From the NCBI GenBank assembly GCA_027080315.1, contig JALWSI010000126.1, positions 1 through 5,877 of the forward strand: a stretch of DNA of 5,877 nucleotides, given 5' to 3'. The position numbers were made by a program, and so were the translations under genes. Below, piece after piece: positions 99 through 4,546 of this stretch. The stretch is from a bacterium. Its GTDB lineage: Bacteria; Thermosulfidibacterota; Thermosulfidibacteria; Thermosulfidibacterales; JALWSI01. A model generated the notes under the pieces. It ran no database searches. It saw only the letters and a list, made by a program, of their open reading frames with translations, and was not told the origin of the DNA. Each line of letters opens with the position of its first letter. Within the stretch, counting starts at the first letter, position 1.

Positions 99-431
99 TT
101 ACTGTTGTAGAATATTCACAATTCTATCAATCACTTCCCTGATCTTGTAGTAACTTAGGTGTCCTACCCGATATAAAACTATGCTGCTGTCTGCAGTGAA
201 TATCCTATTTGGTCTTACGTTGCTCGTCTGTTTAAGAGATCCTTTCTCAAAATCGGCTTCTTCAATGATGATTGCGTATCTGTCTCTCACACTCTGGCTG
301 GTTATCTGGCAAAGGATTAGATCGTCTCCGTCTAACTGGGTGACAACCAAGGCGGGGCGTCTTTTGGCGCGGGTTAGGTCTGAAAATGGAAAGGGCACAA
401 CCACTACGTCTCCTTTCACAAATCTCGCCAA
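99..431 (-). CDS. MazF/PemK-family toxin (probable mRNA endoribonuclease)
   Basis: A 110-residue protein of the MazF/PemK (CcdB-like barrel) family, whose members usually cleave mRNA and arrest growth until neutralised by an antitoxin. Family marks are visible: the N-terminal strand KGDVVVVPFPFSDL (6-19), the basic KRRPALVV segment (23-30) with the arginines expected near the active site, QITS (42-45), and the LKQTSNVRPNRIFT stretch (66-79) matching the family's 'S-x-V...K/R-I/L-F-T' region. Length is normal for the family. The start is TTG at 431-429, chosen because an AGGAGG sits 7 bases upstream; a GTG at residue 5 is the alternative but has no comparable ribosome site. The gene overlaps the upstream antitoxin gene by 16 bases, which suggests translational coupling. 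The family call is firm; RNase activity and target are inferred. Confidence 0.9.
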   Translation of the reverse strand: MARFVKGDVVVVPFPFSDLTRAKRRPALVVTQLDGDDLILCQITSQSVRDRYAIIIEEADFEKGSLKQTSNVRPNRIFTADSSIVLYRVGHLSYYKIREVIDRIVNILQQ

Positions 432-616
432 GCCTCATCCTCCTCGGGCCTAAGCCAGTCTTTATTTAGAGAGGTCTCGCTTGCCAGAGCGGTTTCTATT
501 CCTTCTCTCACAGCCTTTGCCTCTAAAAAGCGGATGAAGTCTAACAGATCTTCAAGGTACTGCTCGGGGATCTTCTCTATCTCTTTTGCAATTAGCTCTT
601 TAACCTCCACCTGCAT
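416..616 (-). CDS. Antitoxin of the MazF-type module (DUF2281-like)
   Basis: A 66-residue acidic protein just upstream of, and overlapping, the toxin gene. The N-terminal half (about 1-36) is predicted helical and amphipathic (VKELIAKEIEKIPEQYLEDLLDFIRFLEAK). The tail ends in WLRPEEDEAWRDL, a terminal pattern common in small antitoxins paired with PemK/MazF toxins, where the acidic tail is expected to wrap the toxin. I see no clear AbrB or ribbon-helix-helix DNA-binding domain, so autoregulation is uncertain. The start is ATG at 616-614, with GAGGAG 6 bases upstream (plus 623-628); a GTG further up at 664 would add 16 residues unlike the family and lacks such a site. The order antitoxin then toxin is standard. 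The antitoxin role rests on context plus tail resemblance. Confidence 0.8.
   Translation of the reverse strand: MQVEVKELIAKEIEKIPEQYLEDLLDFIRFLEAKAVREGIETALASETSLNKDWLRPEEDEAWRDL
439..444 (-). promoter_or_regulatory. Ribosome binding site setting the TTG start of the toxin
   Basis: On the minus strand this is a perfect AGGAGG, 7 bases before the TTG at 431-429, and it lies inside the last codons of the antitoxin gene. It is the main reason for choosing TTG over the in-frame GTG at 419. An ATG sits between it and the TTG but is out of the toxin frame. Confidence 0.6.
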
Positions 617-686
617 CTCTGTCTCCTCGCCATAAGATTTCTCGTGTCTGCAAGACAATAGCACAGGGCAATTGACTGGTAAAACC

Positions 687-727: not shown

Positions 728-1140
728 CTATTTGGAGTAACACACCTCTGATTCGTTGTAGTCTGGAGCGGTGATAGTAGCGTGTGAGTCTTGCCCCACC
801 ACGTGGGTGGACTATCCTGTAATGTTTGTATCAACTCCAGTAATAGTTGTGTTGATGACTGTGGCGCTTGATTTTCCTTCTAAAGGGCAGCCTAGTATAT
901 CTCCGCTTGCATCAAGCTTTAATATCCATAAGTCCCAAACACCGACGCCAGAGGAGTTCGTGAGTCCAGCTACAAGGTATCCGCCATCTGAGGTTTGCTG
1001 TATAGAGTCAAAAAAATCCCGGTCACTTTCGCCGAAAGTTTTTTGCCATGTCACCTTGCCACTTGAGTCAAGTTTAAGAATCTAACCATCCCCATTAACG
1101 GCGCCGAAGGAGCCAGCTACTATTGCTGCCTGCCCAAAAA
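728..1140 (-). pseudogene. Decayed gene for a secreted QQTSDGGYxVAG-repeat protein (C-terminal part)
   Basis: Reading the minus strand in one frame from about 1140 to 728 gives an almost continuous repeat protein. The first partial unit is AIVAGSFGAVNGDG-stop-ILKLDSSGKVTWQKTFGE; the second is SIQQTSDGGYLVAG...DLWILKLDASGDI; a T/N-rich tail follows (VINTTITGVDTNITG-stop-STHVVGQDSHATITAPD...). Similar repeats with 'DGGYIVAG' and 'WILKLDSSGN..WQKTYGG' occur in exported, probably beta-propeller-like proteins of unknown function. Two in-frame TAG codons interrupt it. The first (1084-1082) stands where the family has Trp (D-x-W-I-L-K-L), as expected from a TGG to TAG change; the second (814-812) is in the tail. 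The frame then continues 27 codons to a final TAG at 730-728. Upstream of about 1140 the repeat pattern is lost, so the 5' part is missing or rearranged. The longest intact piece, 812-1054, has no convincing start of its own. Confidence 0.65.
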
Positions 1141-1322: not shown

Positions 1323-2009
1323 ATGAGAAGAGCATTAATCAACCTATCAGCTGTGATCCTTATTCTCCTGGTAGCTTCTCTTTCATCCTCTGCTGATCCC
1401 ATAACCCAGCTTCCCACCCATGAAAAGGTGGTGGCTCTCACCTTTGATGCCTGTGAGACCATCACTCCCGCCTACTTTGACATGCCCCTTCTCAACTATC
1501 TCCTCAAAGAGAGGCTGCCATTCACTATATTCATCAGTGGCAAGTTTGCCCGGGAACCCGCCAATGCCTTGGTCATAAAGCAACTCTCCCATAACCCCCG
1601 AGTAAAGATAGAGAACCACTCCTTCTCTCATGTCCTTCACATGGAGAGGTTGCCGGCCCAGAGAGTGCGGGATGAGGTGCTGAAGACTGAGAGGATTATC
1701 CTCAAACTAACAGGAAAGAGACCGCGATTTTTCCGGTTCCCGGGAGGCTATTGTGACCGTAGAACAATGGCGCTGGTGGAGAGCTTGGGCTACAGGGTGG
1801 TTCGCTGGACCTTTGCAAGCGGGGATCCCGACAGAAACATCACTCCATTGCGACTGAAAAGGTGGGTTCTTCTAAAGACCCGTCCTGGTGCCATTCTCAT
1901 CTTCCACATAAACGGCAGGGGATACAGCACCGCCGCTGCATTGCCTGTGATCGTTAGGGAGTTGAAGAGGCAAGGCTACAGGTTTGTGAGGTTGGATGAA
2001 GTTTTTTGA
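1323..2009 (+). CDS. Exported polysaccharide deacetylase (NodB homology domain)
   Basis: A 228-residue carbohydrate esterase family 4-like protein that would remove acetyl groups from a sugar polymer such as peptidoglycan or an exopolysaccharide; the substrate is unknown. Residues 1-24 form a signal peptide (MRRA, hydrophobic core, SSSA before DP), so it acts outside the cytoplasm. NodB motifs follow in order: motif 1 TFDAC (40-44), motif 2 NHSFSH (98-103, metal ligands H99 and H103), motif 3 RFPGGY (138-143), motif 4 region RWTFASGDPD (161-170), motif 5 LIFHING (192-198, catalytic H195). Motif 1 is odd: the usual TFDD has Ala43 where the second, metal-binding Asp is expected; Asp42, the presumed base, is kept. 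The ATG gives a textbook signal peptide but has no clear Shine-Dalgarno site. The gene is alone on its strand, and its stop codon lies within the first unit of the repeat region that follows. Confidence 0.88.
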   Translation: MRRALINLSAVILILLVASLSSSADPITQLPTHEKVVALTFDACETITPAYFDMPLLNYLLKERLPFTIFISGKFAREPANALVIKQLSHNPRVKIENHSFSHVLHMERLPAQRVRDEVLKTERIILKLTGKRPRFFRFPGGYCDRRTMALVESLGYRVVRWTFASGDPDRNITPLRLKRWVLLKTRPGAILIFHINGRGYSTAAALPVIVRELKRQGYRFVRLDEVF

Positions 2010-2032
2010 AGTTTTAAGTTGCAAGGGTTAAG
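2005..2032. repeat. Heptamer tandem block 1 (TTTTAAG type)
   Basis: Four consecutive 7-base units: TTTGAAG (2005-2011), TTTTAAG (2012-2018), TTGCAAG (2019-2025), GGTTAAG (2026-2032). The TGA stop of the deacetylase gene (2007-2009) is inside the first unit. The same unit type returns at 2106-2133, on the far side of the nonamer array. Confidence 0.75.
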
Positions 2033-2094
2033 TTGATTTGGTCTATCTGGTCTATCTGGTCTATCTCGTCCATCTGGTTGATTTGGTTTGTTGA
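2032..2094. repeat. Nonamer tandem array (GTCTATCTG type)
   Basis: Seven consecutive 9-base units in perfect register: GTTGATTTG, GTCTATCTG, GTCTATCTG, GTCTATCTC, GTCCATCTG, GTTGATTTG, GTTTGTTGA. The central units are nearly identical, and the outer GTTGATTTG variants flank them on both sides. A unit length of 9 keeps a plus-strand frame open, but TAA at 2029-2031 stands just before it and no start precedes it, so coding is unlikely. Confidence 0.9.
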
Positions 2095-2105
2095 ATTTCA
2101 GGAAG

Positions 2106-2133
2106 TGTTAAGTTTTAAGGGTTAAGTTTTAAG
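2106..2133. repeat. Heptamer tandem block 2 (TTTTAAG type)
   Basis: Four 7-base units without gaps: TGTTAAG, TTTTAAG, GGTTAAG, TTTTAAG. Same type as block 1, so the nonamer array is bracketed by related heptamer blocks. On the minus strand each unit contains CTTAA, giving the T-N-A core shared with the larger heptamer array to the right. Confidence 0.8.
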
Positions 2134-2140
2134 AATCCAC

Positions 2141-2355
2141 TGACTTCTGGTTACTGACCTTTGATCCCTGACCCCTTACTCCTTACGCTTCACGCTTTAC
2201 TACTTACGCCTTACTCAGTCCTCAGTCCTCAGCACTCAGTCCCATTTCTCCTTACTCCTCACGCTTTACACCTTACGCTTCACGCCTAATACTCATCTCT
2301 GATTTCTGACTCCTGATTTCTGACTTCTGACTCCTGACCCCTGACCTCCGATCCC
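2141..2355. repeat. Diverged heptamer array, about 30 units of T-N-A-Y-N-N-Y
   Basis: From 2141 the plus strand parses almost entirely into 7-base words that begin T-[G/T/C]-A and end in a pyrimidine, for example TGACTTC, TTACGCT, TCACGCT, TCAGTCC, TGACTCC. Ten units run without a slip from 2141 to 2210. After a 4-base partial TTAC there are three TCAG units, then small slips (one 9-mer at 2236, one 6-mer at 2287) and further units to 2355. Variants cluster: TGA words (2141-2175), TTAC/TCAC words (2176-2214), TCAG words (2215-2244), TTAC/TCAC words again (2252-2286), TGA words again (2300-2348). The plus strand is G-poor and pyrimidine-rich. It ends 5 bases before the lptG stop. It is not CRISPR: there are no constant repeats with unique spacers. 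Confidence 0.88.
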
Positions 2356-2360
2356 TGCTA

Positions 2361-3431
2361 CTACTCCGCTGCCTCAAACATCCTGAAGCCCAGGAACCCA
2401 AAGATGATGTGGGGCAGCCAGCAGCCTACTATGGCAGGTAAAAGCCCCTTTTGTGAGAGGGATAAGAATATGGAGAGCCCTATCCAGTAGAAGAATCCAA
2501 ATAGAATACCCTTTCCTATGCCAAGAAGCATCTCTCCTCTTCTGGGATTCACTATGCCGAAGGGCAGGGCCAGAAGCACCATGATGAGGGGTGAGAAGGC
2601 TAAGGAGATTCTTCCCATTGCTTCGGTTTCAAGGTCCCTTCGTTTCAACCCTTGAGCCCTCATGTCTTTGATGTACTCTTTTAGCTCCCCGTAAGTCATC
2701 TGCTGGGGAGGCTTTTTTCTGTCGTCTATCTCTGAAGGGGATAGTCCAAGGTCAAACCCTAAGTTCTTGAAAGATTGCTCTTTTACCCCCTCTCTGTTCC
2801 AGAATATGGCCACGCCCTTAGGAGCGAACCACTTGCTGTTCTTCCATACGGCCTTTGGGGCGAGGTAGGTTATCTTCATGGTGTCCTTCTTTATGAGAAA
2901 ACAGGTGATTCCCCTAATTTCTCTATTTCTCTCGTCGTAGAAGGAGAGGAGGCAGGTGTTGTTTCCCTTCCTCACCCATACATTGCTGAAAGATATGAGC
3001 CTTACGGATTTTTTGCCTTTTATATCTGCGTTAAGCACCACCCATCTCTTCTGAAGCGACACCGGCACCACAGAGGCGTTCCAGGGAATCAGGAATATAG
3101 AGGATAGAAGGCCCACAATAACGACGGGGAAGAGCACCGTCCTTAGCCTTATCCCCACCGCCTTCATTGCTATGATCTCAGAGCCCCAGGATAGTCCTAC
3201 CAACAGCATCAGGGTTCCAACCAAGAAAGCCAGAGGCAGGGTGTGGGCGAGGGCCTGGGGAAAGGAGGCCAATAGGTATCTGAAAAGGGCGTGAAGTGAG
3301 GCCCGGTACTCAAGGACGTCGTCTAACACATCAAAGAATATCACAAGGTAGTAAACCAACAGAACCGATCCCAGAGCCAGGGCCAGCCTTTTGAGGAATT
3401 CCTTTAACACGCTTTTGGGAAGAAGGTTCAT
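2361..3431 (-). CDS. lptG: LPS export ABC transporter permease LptG
   Basis: A 356-residue inner-membrane protein of the YjgP/YjgQ family. With LptF and the ATPase LptB it extracts lipopolysaccharide from the inner membrane and passes it to the periplasmic bridge. The layout fits: membrane segments near 13-33, 57-80 and 98-117, a periplasmic beta-jellyroll-like domain (about 125-245), then three more segments near 275-293, 303-325 and 330-350. The conserved cytoplasmic stretch SWGSEIIAMKAVGI (81-94), the coupling region for LptB, and the MTYGELKEYI segment (246-255) before membrane segment 4 are present. It is called LptG rather than LptF by being second in the pair and by FFDVLDDV in segment 1. 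The ATG overlaps the lptF stop as ATGA, with GAAGG about 9 bases upstream. It ends with two tandem TAG codons and runs into the heptamer array; I see no hairpin terminator. Confidence 0.88.
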   Translation of the reverse strand: MNLLPKSVLKEFLKRLALALGSVLLVYYLVIFFDVLDDVLEYRASLHALFRYLLASFPQALAHTLPLAFLVGTLMLLVGLSWGSEIIAMKAVGIRLRTVLFPVVIVGLLSSIFLIPWNASVVPVSLQKRWVVLNADIKGKKSVRLISFSNVWVRKGNNTCLLSFYDERNREIRGITCFLIKKDTMKITYLAPKAVWKNSKWFAPKGVAIFWNREGVKEQSFKNLGFDLGLSPSEIDDRKKPPQQMTYGELKEYIKDMRAQGLKRRDLETEAMGRISLAFSPLIMVLLALPFGIVNPRRGEMLLGIGKGILFGFFYWIGLSIFLSLSQKGLLPAIVGCWLPHIIFGFLGFRMFEAAE

Positions 3432-4546
3432 AGACCCACGCCTTCAGACTTACGTTTGATGAGCCAGAGCCCGGTTCCTCCAAGGATGAGGTTGGGCGCC
3501 CATACCGCCAATGCCGCAGGGAGCAATCCTTTTAGGGCTATGTCCTGGAACAGAGCCAGAAGCCCAAAGTATAGCATGAGCCCTGCTAAGGTGATGATGG
3601 ATCCCGTCCATTTGCCCGACCTGCGGGCAAAGACCCCAAGGGGTATGCCCAACAGGGCGAACACCATGGCAGAGAAGGGCACCGCAAACCTCTTGTGCAG
3701 GTGGAGAAGTGTGTTGAGGAAACGTCTCTTAGATACCTCTCTGTCACGCTTCAGCCTTGCCAAAAGGGCAGGAAGCGTTAGGTCTCGCTTTGTTTCAGAG
3801 CCTAAGCTTCCTGACAGAAAAGGGTTCTCCATAGATAGAACGTAGAGCTTGAAAGAGAGCTGTTTGTATCCATCCTTGATGGCGCTGTATATGTTGCCAT
3901 TGCTGAAGGCAAAGTTTAGGGTGTTGTCAAAGGGGTTTATGCTAACTTTGGCCTTTTTTGCCATGATTATGCGTACGATTCCCGTCTTTTTGCCTGAGTC
4001 GTAGAGAAAGACGTCCTTTATCTTTTTACCTTTAACCTTTCCGCAGTATATCCAGATTCCCCTCTTCAATTGAAAGAACTCGCCGGGTTTAAGGCTTGAG
4101 CTGGGTGTCTCCATCATGGCTTTGACGGCAAAGCCTTTTATTGCCCTGTTGCTTAAGGGGGCGAGGTAGAGCTGAAACAGAAGGGATAGCACCACAACCC
4201 CTGCAGATAGGGCAACCAGGGGATAGGCGATTCTTTTAAGAGAGACACCGGAGGAGAGAAGGGCGATCAGCTCACCGTCTGCCGATAGCCTGCCCACGCT
4301 AACGAGCACCGAGAAGAGGTAGGATGGGGGGAATGCAAAGCCCAAAGACGAGACCACGGCGGAGAGAATCAGAGCCATGATGATAATGGGAGAAGCACCC
4401 CGGGCGATGATCTCGCTTAAGGACATCACCCTGCTCATCACGAAGAGGAAGAGGAATATACCCAAGCCCAATCCAAAAGAGGAGAAGGTCTCTCTCATAA
4501 GCTCCCAGTCGTAGGTGGTGATGGGGAGCCCCTTAGCTCTTTTCAT
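3428..4546 (-). CDS. lptF: LPS export ABC transporter permease LptF
   Basis: A 372-residue YjgP/YjgQ-family inner-membrane protein, partner of LptG in the LptB2FG lipopolysaccharide extractor. Membrane segments are seen near 22-42, 53-83 and 106-128, then a periplasmic jellyroll-like domain (about 133-255), then segments near 284-304, 314-335 and 340-363. The family's cytoplasmic loop GRLSADGELIALLSSGVSLKR (85-105), which meets the ATPase, is clear. Segment 2 has FAFPPSYLF (70-78) where many homologues have an LPMA-like stretch. The start ATG has AGAGGA 5 bases upstream (plus 4552-4557). It follows the RDD gene after a 17-base gap, the only real gap in the operon, and overlaps lptG by 4 bases. 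LptB must be encoded elsewhere. Confidence 0.88.
   Translation of the reverse strand: MKRAKGLPITTYDWELMRETFSSFGLGLGIFLFLFVMSRVMSLSEIIARGASPIIIMALILSAVVSSLGFAFPPSYLFSVLVSVGRLSADGELIALLSSGVSLKRIAYPLVALSAGVVVLSLLFQLYLAPLSNRAIKGFAVKAMMETPSSSLKPGEFFQLKRGIWIYCGKVKGKKIKDVFLYDSGKKTGIVRIIMAKKAKVSINPFDNTLNFAFSNGNIYSAIKDGYKQLSFKLYVLSMENPFLSGSLGSETKRDLTLPALLARLKRDREVSKRRFLNTLLHLHKRFAVPFSAMVFALLGIPLGVFARRSGKWTGSIITLAGLMLYFGLLALFQDIALKGLLPAALAVWAPNLILGGTGLWLIKRKSEGVGL

What the first reader, a model, noticed from the sequence alone, without database searches (positions are those of the whole stretch)
2141..2355. About 30 diverged heptamers share a fixed T-N-A core
Seen directly: the plus strand parses into 7-base words starting T-[G/T/C]-A, with ten words in perfect phase from 2141 to 2210 and only a few slips afterwards. 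Position 2 of each word varies among G, T and C, while positions 1 and 3 hardly change and the last position is a pyrimidine. Ordinary slippage repeats drift at all positions; here some positions are kept while others diversify, as if a repeated contact or a biased process maintains the core. I know of no named repeat family with this rule.
Basis: seen in the sequence. Interest (0 to 1): 0.65.

Follow-up and report, generated by a model that had tools for sequence, protein, structure and literature searches.

The report
Heptamer arrays: relics of S23 elements
The repeated 7-letter words are real and belong to a multi-copy intergenic repeat; tests across many bacteria show that such arrays are normally the two complementary arms around a small widespread gene (S23, four-helix-bundle), which links a puzzling class of bacterial repeats to a poorly understood selfish element, although this particular copy has lost (or never had) the gene.

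Summary
The array is real: 23 in-phase T-N-A pairs in 2141-2355, against at most 5 in 2000 shuffles. The T-N-A rule is not. Position 2 is fixed in CTGANNN words and T or C in YT[TC]ACNC words; the mixture arises because different modules are joined. The array is the 3' part of a composite (2010-2357): C'-A(9-mers)-C-D-E-F-E'-D'. About 16 copies lie in the genome, with fixed module order and even a conserved order of variant heptamers, so they were copied as units.

Following the words led to PF05635 (S23/23S rRNA intervening-sequence protein). In 70 S23 loci, 69 have a 7-9-mer array beside the gene and 46 on both sides (PIN controls 0/30 on both). The two arrays are usually inverted copies of each other. 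Their words differ between loci of one genome, yet the two arms of a locus match. At one operon junction, 14 genomes carry S23 plus arms, 10 have a 2-30 bp gap, and some carry arms alone. In this genome and its order, intact and truncated S23 genes abut the composite in one orientation.

Best reading: the window array is an S23-less remnant of such arms. Against it: the window has no S23 trace and its own arms are not complementary.

The parts
2010..2036 (+). module C': AAG-type heptamers (AAGTTTT AAGTTGC AAGGGTT AAGTTGA) directly after the deacetylase stop codon
   Evidence: sequence; the start of the query (1-77) matches C231:7161-7237 at 84%
2037..2090 (+). module A: 9-mer array TGGTCTATC / TGGTTTGTT
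   Evidence: TRF period 9, 2039-2078; multi-copy in G000 and in G001, G003, G005, G007, G008 of the same order
2101..2136 (+). module C: heptamers AAGTGTT AAGTTTT AAGGGTT AAGTTTT, ending in the conserved junction AAGAATCNN
   Evidence: TRF period 7/14, 2103-2133; junction TTTTAAGAATCNNCTGA in 9 copies exactly and 2 more with 1-2 mismatches in G000
2139..2173 (+). module D: CTGACTT CTGGTTA CTGACCT TTGATCC CTGACCC
   Evidence: unit parse and conserved unit order
2174..2215 (+). module E: CTTACTC CTTACGC TTCACGC TTTACTA CTTACGC CTTACTC
   Evidence: TRF 2174-2214; unit order
2214..2242 (+). module F: CTCAGTC x4
   Evidence: TRF 2214-2242
2251..2291 (+). second E array (E'): CTTACTC CTCACGC TTTACAC CTTACGC TTCACGC
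   Evidence: TRF 2248-2280
2292..2357 (+). second D array (D'): CTCATCT CTGATTT CTGACTC CTGATTT CTGACTT CTGACTC CTGACCC CTGACCT; ends 4 bp before the end of the LptF gene
   Evidence: TRF 2298-2357
1323..2009 (+). neighbouring gene: polysaccharide deacetylase (PF01522)
   Evidence: Pfam E 1.4e-23
2361..3431 (-). neighbouring gene: LptF/LptG permease (PF03739), convergent
   Evidence: Pfam E 2.2e-70

Best explanation
The window array is a dispersed intergenic repeat made of several short tandem arrays. It most likely descends from the non-coding arms of an S23 (PF05635, 23S rRNA intervening-sequence protein) element that has lost its gene. Shown: S23 genes outside rRNA are, across many bacterial groups, bracketed by 7- to 9-mer arrays. 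The arrays are usually inverted copies of one another, come and go with the gene at one orthologous site, can persist without it, and have words that differ from locus to locus while the two arms stay matched. Shown: in this genome one intact and one truncated S23 gene sit in copies of the composite, and in sister genera further intact or truncated S23 genes abut it in the same orientation. Inferred: the arms pair in RNA (or single-stranded DNA) as in rRNA intervening sequences and are cut by RNase III. Slippage changes word number, and correction across the hairpin keeps the two arms alike. After loss of S23 the arms decay, are copied as units by recombination, and leave relics such as 2010-2357.
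For: Class level. (1) First 28 loci: arrays on both flanks 21/28, either 28/28; PIN control 0/30 both, 5/30 either; upstream against reverse-complemented downstream score median 36.5 against 18. (2) 42 further loci: both 25, either 41, inverted median 31 against 18-20 for controls. (3) Pseudo-genes displaced within the same loci: 0/156 both, 1/156 inverted, against 20/26 and 19/26. (4) 13 genomes with several S23 loci: same-locus arms median 35, arms of different loci 19.3, none reaching 30. (5) fadB-fadA junction in 30 genomes: 14 with S23 and arrays, 10 with a 2-30 bp gap, and arm-only states such as L246 and L243. (6) Named plasmids: Nostoc edaphicum GGGAGTA arms (hairpin z -9.4), Trichormus arms with CTGACTC words like module D (z -5.4). 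Window level. (7) S23 at C231:9314-9670 lies between module C and an E-like array, and a truncated S23 C-terminus abuts module C in another copy. (8) S23 or fragments next to the composite, 3' end facing C/A, in G001, G005, G007 and G008. (9) S23 arms share words with the composites of their own genome in G000, G001 and G007.
Against: No S23 remnant is detectable in the window. Its modules C and D-F are not complementary (score 14, shuffles 13.3 +/- 2.0; only 1 of 10 copies exceeds shuffles), and it folds no better than shuffles on either strand (z 0.14). Composites also border toxin-antitoxin genes without S23, so adjacency to S23 may partly reflect shared islands. In G003 the shared-word test fails. 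Some fadBA gaps without S23 (L227, L229, L240) are not complementary.
Confidence: 0.5

Rival explanations
1. An independent composite short-tandem-repeat family (like cyanobacterial STRR or the TAACTGA heptamers) that spreads as a unit and lies between gene cassettes (toxin-antitoxin, CRISPR, glycan genes), where homologous recombination between copies shuffles the cassettes. S23 genes are only some of the cassettes.
For: About 16 copies with fixed module order and conserved unit order. Copies cluster in C231 and C6 beside HicA, ParE, AbiEii, DUF433/DUF5615, PIN and PemK genes and a CRISPR array. PIN genes of sister genera also lie next to module A. No complementarity in the window copy.
Against: Does not explain why S23 genes and fragments abut module C/A in one orientation in five genomes, nor the general link of such arrays with S23.
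Confidence: 0.33
2. Plain microsatellite growth: a 7-base word expanded by polymerase slippage here and diverged by point mutation.
For: Period 7 is the commonest long simple repeat class in bacteria (Mrazek et al. as summarised in PMC4679880); copy numbers of units differ between copies.
Against: Fixed module order and conserved order of variant units among dispersed copies; conserved junction sequence in 11 copies.
Confidence: 0.07
3. A maintained array of contacts for a DNA- or RNA-binding protein that reads T-N-A every 7 bases, or a rut-like terminator between the convergent genes.
For: Some positions are invariant within modules; the D-F strand is C-rich and G-poor, and the region lies between convergent genes.
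Against: Words turn over completely between related genera while the architecture stays; copies also lie upstream of genes or antisense to them; position 2 is module-specific rather than free.
Confidence: 0.1

Closest known systems
23S rRNA intervening sequences (IVS) with S23p ORF, e.g. Coxiella burnetii (PMC4990558)
   Same: S23 ORF, terminal inverted repeats, and in Coxiella 2-3 tandem heptamers (GACAGAT) directly before the ORF with strain-variable copy number
   Different: The loci studied here were found beside protein genes, often inside operons; arms are long tandem arrays with locus-specific words; the window copy has no S23 and no complementary arms
TAACTGA direct repeats of Beggiatoaceae, Cyanobacteria and Bacteroidetes (PMC4679880)
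   Same: Intergenic heptamer arrays, patchy distribution, mixed words in some genomes, suspected role in rearrangement
   Different: One near-invariant word there; many module-specific words here; no link to S23 was seen in the sections read
Cyanobacterial STRR sequences (from my own knowledge)
   Same: Degenerate heptamers such as CTGACTC or GGGAGTA; here seen as S23 arms on Nostoc and Trichormus plasmids
   Different: Classically described as single tandem arrays, not as paired inverted arms of a gene
MITEs / REPINs
   Same: Short, non-coding, multi-copy, intergenic
   Different: No terminal inverted repeat or target duplication was identified in the composite
Avd of diversity-generating retroelements (PMC10053308)
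   Same: PF05635 and Avd are related four-helix bundles
   Different: No reverse transcriptase, template or variable repeat was seen or sought here

Membership tests
Bacterial heptamer tandem repeats (STRR / LSSR / TAACTGA kind) | Intergenic head-to-tail 7-base units beyond chance | tested here: met
Bacterial heptamer tandem repeats (STRR / LSSR / TAACTGA kind) | Multiple dispersed copies in the genome | tested here: met
Bacterial heptamer tandem repeats (STRR / LSSR / TAACTGA kind) | One near-constant unit word (TAACTGA type) | tested here: not met
   several module-specific words, plus 9-mers
S23 / IVS-like element | S23 (PF05635) ORF inside the element | tested here: not met
   no tblastn match in the window; met in one copy and partly in another copy of the same repeat, C231
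S23 / IVS-like element | Inverted, mutually complementary arms | tested here: not met
   window C against reverse complement of D-F no better than shuffles; folding z 0.14
S23 / IVS-like element | Arms built of 7- to 9-base tandem words | tested here: met
   window; class
S23 / IVS-like element | Shares arm sequence with S23 loci of the same genome | tested here: met
   (G000 own 46, other genomes 24.5-28, shuffled 18.5); same composite includes S23 at C231
23S rRNA intervening sequence (strict sense) | Located in helix 9, 25 or 45 of 23S rRNA | tested here: not met
   window lies between deacetylase and LptF genes
23S rRNA intervening sequence (strict sense) | RNase III excision from the precursor RNA | not testable with these tools
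   needs RNA
MITE | Terminal inverted repeats and target-site duplication | tested here: inconclusive
   no terminal inverted repeat noticed in the copies read; no same-genus empty site available for this repeat
CRISPR array | Constant repeat separated by unique spacers | tested here: not met
   head-to-tail units without spacers
Diversity-generating retroelement | Reverse transcriptase with template and variable repeats | not tested
   none looked for

The most novel reading that the evidence does not exclude
Many of the enigmatic heptamer arrays of bacterial genomes (including STRR-type words and the array in this window) are the living or decayed arms of one very widespread family of S23 elements. 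These insert beside or inside operons, form locus-specific hairpins of tandem words, and leave gene-less arrays behind.
Probability: 0.45. Interest if true: 0.8.

Novelty: new variant of a known kind. Interest (0 to 1): 0.62.

Why it matters
Heptamer arrays have been seen since the first cyanobacterial sequences, and S23 intervening sequences for over 25 years; the function and origin of IVS remain unclear (PMC4990558). In these data the two coincide in dozens of genera. If that holds, arrays can be used to find S23 elements and their relics, and S23 genes can explain arrays. The locus-specific but mutually matched arms are a natural record of how inverted tandem arrays are made and corrected. 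It also suggests that mRNAs (for example cas10-cmr3, cas6-cas4, fadB-fadA, nuo genes) may carry rRNA-like intervening hairpins.

Tried and rejected
(a) T-N-A as a general rule: rejected; relatives use other words. (b) Hairpin of the window composite itself: rejected; z 0.14 on both strands, modules not complementary. (c) All-frame stop-codon array (T-N-A = stop on one strand, 7 coprime with 3): considered from the sequence; not pursued, because the 9-mer module lies in the same unit and words turn over. (d) Bidirectional rut-like terminator from the GC-skew switch: considered, kept only within the third rival, untested. (e) Horizontal transfer of the whole composite: the junction pattern in 84,980 named genomes gave one exact match, in an unrelated Lachnospiraceae contig that I did not examine further and take for chance. 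(f) Insertion preference of S23 for pre-existing arrays: unlikely at fadB-fadA, where gaps without S23 are mostly 2-30 bp and carry no array. (g) Phage carriage of S23: no match.

Full report
OBSERVATION. The region 2141-2355 is a genuine period-7 array. T-N-A words at spacing 7 number 23 pairs against a maximum of 5 in 2000 dinucleotide-preserving shuffles; lag-7 identity is 0.67 against about 0.25 at neighbouring lags. TRF finds the same blocks, together with a 9-mer array at 2039-2078 and a 7/14-mer array at 2103-2133 just before them. The whole gap between a polysaccharide deacetylase (1323-2009, +) and an LptF/LptG permease (2361-3431, -) is therefore a string of short arrays.

WHAT THE RULE REALLY IS. 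Words of the E type have T-[T or C]-A-C fixed, and F words are CTCAG. So position 2 hardly varies inside a module.

COPIES IN THE GENOME. BLAST with 2010-2370 gives 32 matches in the own genome of 1.84 Mb, which I count as about 16 composites: C231 (about eight), C6 (three), C89, C168, C208, C219, C245, C142 and the window's C126. They share one order on one strand: A (TGGTCTATC 9-mers), B (TTGGGTTTG 9-mers, in some), C (AAGTTTT heptamers), the junction TTTTAAGAATCNN (11 copies within 2 mismatches), D, E, F. The order of variant heptamers is conserved: the unit-alignment score over all pairs of copies is 609, against 325 +/- 16 for shuffled units and 399 +/- 19 for units shuffled inside their module; 0 of 300 shuffles reach it in either case. 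The diverged array was thus copied as a unit. Most of the divergence between units is old and inherited, and no constraint on each unit is needed to explain a shared core.

RELATIVES. Five genomes of the same order share module A. Their composites read A, then a purine-rich 9-mer such as GGCGAGAAA, then heptamers such as CTTAATC/CTTACCC or GGGCGAA. The architecture is kept while the words turn over. The exact junction is not found in named genomes except one match in an unrelated Lachnospiraceae contig.

THE LINK TO S23. Two composites of C231 flank a PF05635 gene (23S_rRNA_IVP, 'four helix bundle' or S23): an intact one at 9314-9670 (Pfam E 1.5e-33) and a truncated C-terminus at 8522-8596. 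This led to a test of S23 genes in general. In the best S23 locus of each of 28 genomes, a 7-, 8- or 9-mer array lies on both sides of the gene in 21 and on at least one side in 28. Among 30 PIN genes from the same set of genomes the numbers are 0 and 5. Smith-Waterman scores of the upstream flank against the reverse complement of the downstream flank have a median of 36.5 for S23 and 18 for PIN. A second set of 42 loci gives 25 both, 41 either, inverted median 31. Pseudo-genes displaced within the same loci give 0/156 with both arrays and 1/156 with inverted similarity of 28 or more (S23 at 160-bp flanks: 20/26 and 19/26).

LOCUS-SPECIFIC WORDS, MATCHED ARMS. In 13 genomes with more than one S23 locus, the two arms of one locus match (median 35; 31 of 49 reach 30). 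Arms of different loci in the same genome do not (median 19.3; none of the 49 per-locus means reaches 30), nor do arms between genomes (median 17). Each locus has its own word, shared by its two arms, so the arms must be made or corrected together.

A NATURAL EXPERIMENT. Between fadB and fadA of 30 genomes of one order, ten have gaps of 2-30 bp and no array. Fourteen have gaps of 345-771 bp with an S23 match (tblastn 7e-6 to 8e-90) and arrays. Six lie between (51-237 bp), without S23; of these L246 (score 29, shuffles 13; folding z -3.2) and L243 (21, shuffles 15) keep opposing heptamer arms. Some short gaps (L228, L232) look as if they keep one or two arm words. Arrays therefore belong to the S23 element at this site and can remain after the gene is lost. 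Between genomes, arms at this site are less distinct than between loci of one genome (10 of 19 own pairs and 40 of 342 cross pairs reach 26), as expected if some related genomes inherited the same insertion.

NAMED EXAMPLES. On plasmids the pattern can be read by eye: Nostoc edaphicum has GGGAGTA arms around S23 between the nrdB-like and nrdA-like genes (hairpin z -9.4), Nostoc C052 GGGAACA, and Trichormus variabilis ATCC 29413 has TCAGAAT/CTGACTC arms (z -5.4) whose words equal module D of the window. Picosynechococcus PCC 7003 has 8-mers around S23 between cas10 and cmr3, and Anabaena 90 has arms around S23 between cas6 and cas4. In Pseudanabaena the two arrays are not complementary (score 16). 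Phage records have no S23 match.

BACK TO THE WINDOW. In the window's order, S23 genes or fragments beside the composite have their 3' end towards module C/A: G000 intact and truncated, G001, G005, G007 twice intact and in fragments, G008 a fragment. S23 arms share words with the composites of their own genome in G000 (46 against 24.5-28 with other genomes), G001 (38.8 against 21.8-32.5) and G007 (38 against 19-27), but not clearly in G003. In C231 the gene occupies the place between C and an E-like array where the window has the C|D junction. I therefore think the window composite most likely descends from such an element without its gene (confidence 0.5). Two defining features are not met in the window itself: there is no S23 remnant, and its arrays are not complementary and do not fold. 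As composites also separate toxin-antitoxin and other cassettes, an independent repeat family that brackets cassettes remains a serious rival.

KNOWN WORK. The Coxiella IVS paper reports 2-3 tandem GACAGAT heptamers before the S23p ORF, inverted terminal repeats and RNase III cleavage, and calls function and origin unclear (PMC4990558). TAACTGA heptamers are described, in the sections read, without reference to S23 (PMC4679880). Eight full-text searches found no paper that links heptamer arrays with S23 genes in general; most subscription journals and all bioRxiv preprints are missing from that library, so novelty is provisional. That STRR words are the classical cyanobacterial repeats is my own knowledge.

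LIMITS. Insertions inside rRNA were not separated. Array calls use a simple threshold (18 of 28 matches at lag 7, 8 or 9). Pairing in RNA, RNase III cleavage and any role of the S23 protein are inferred from the IVS literature.

Noticed in passing
window 99-664 (-): A PemK/MazF-like toxin gene (99-431) next to a DUF2281-like antitoxin candidate (416-664); toxin-antitoxin genes recur beside the composite elsewhere in the genome.
   Followed up: partly
window 812-1054 (-): Open frame reading TFGESDRDFFDSIQQTSDGGYLVAGLTNSSGVG..., which looks like a fragment of a larger repeat protein, flanked by non-coding sequence.
   Followed up: no
L010 (G000:C6) about 3400-4501: A CRISPR array with repeat GTTGGAATTTGAGACCTGCTCAAAAGGGATTAAGAC about 300 bp from a composite copy; one spacer pair is duplicated.
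   Followed up: no
G003, about 40 places: A dispersed element with the near-constant string CTGATAGCTGATGGCTCATGGCTG, also at several contig ends: a separate high-copy heptamer repeat in a sister genus.
   Followed up: no
G016:C7:104028-104554, C2:122174-122711, C3:436717-437275: PF05635-like matches in pairs on opposite strands, about 170-180 bp apart, repeated in one genome (19 matches): possibly a different multi-copy unit.
   Followed up: no
L251, L252, L253: S23 elements lying antisense to both neighbouring genes (for example between nrdB-like and nrdA-like genes of Nostoc edaphicum), whereas most named examples are co-directional with their neighbours.
   Followed up: partly
L228, L232 (fadB-fadA gap): Short gaps that look as if they keep one or two heptamers of a lost 3' arm (ATCTCACATCTAAAA), suggesting decay by deletion.
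   Followed up: partly
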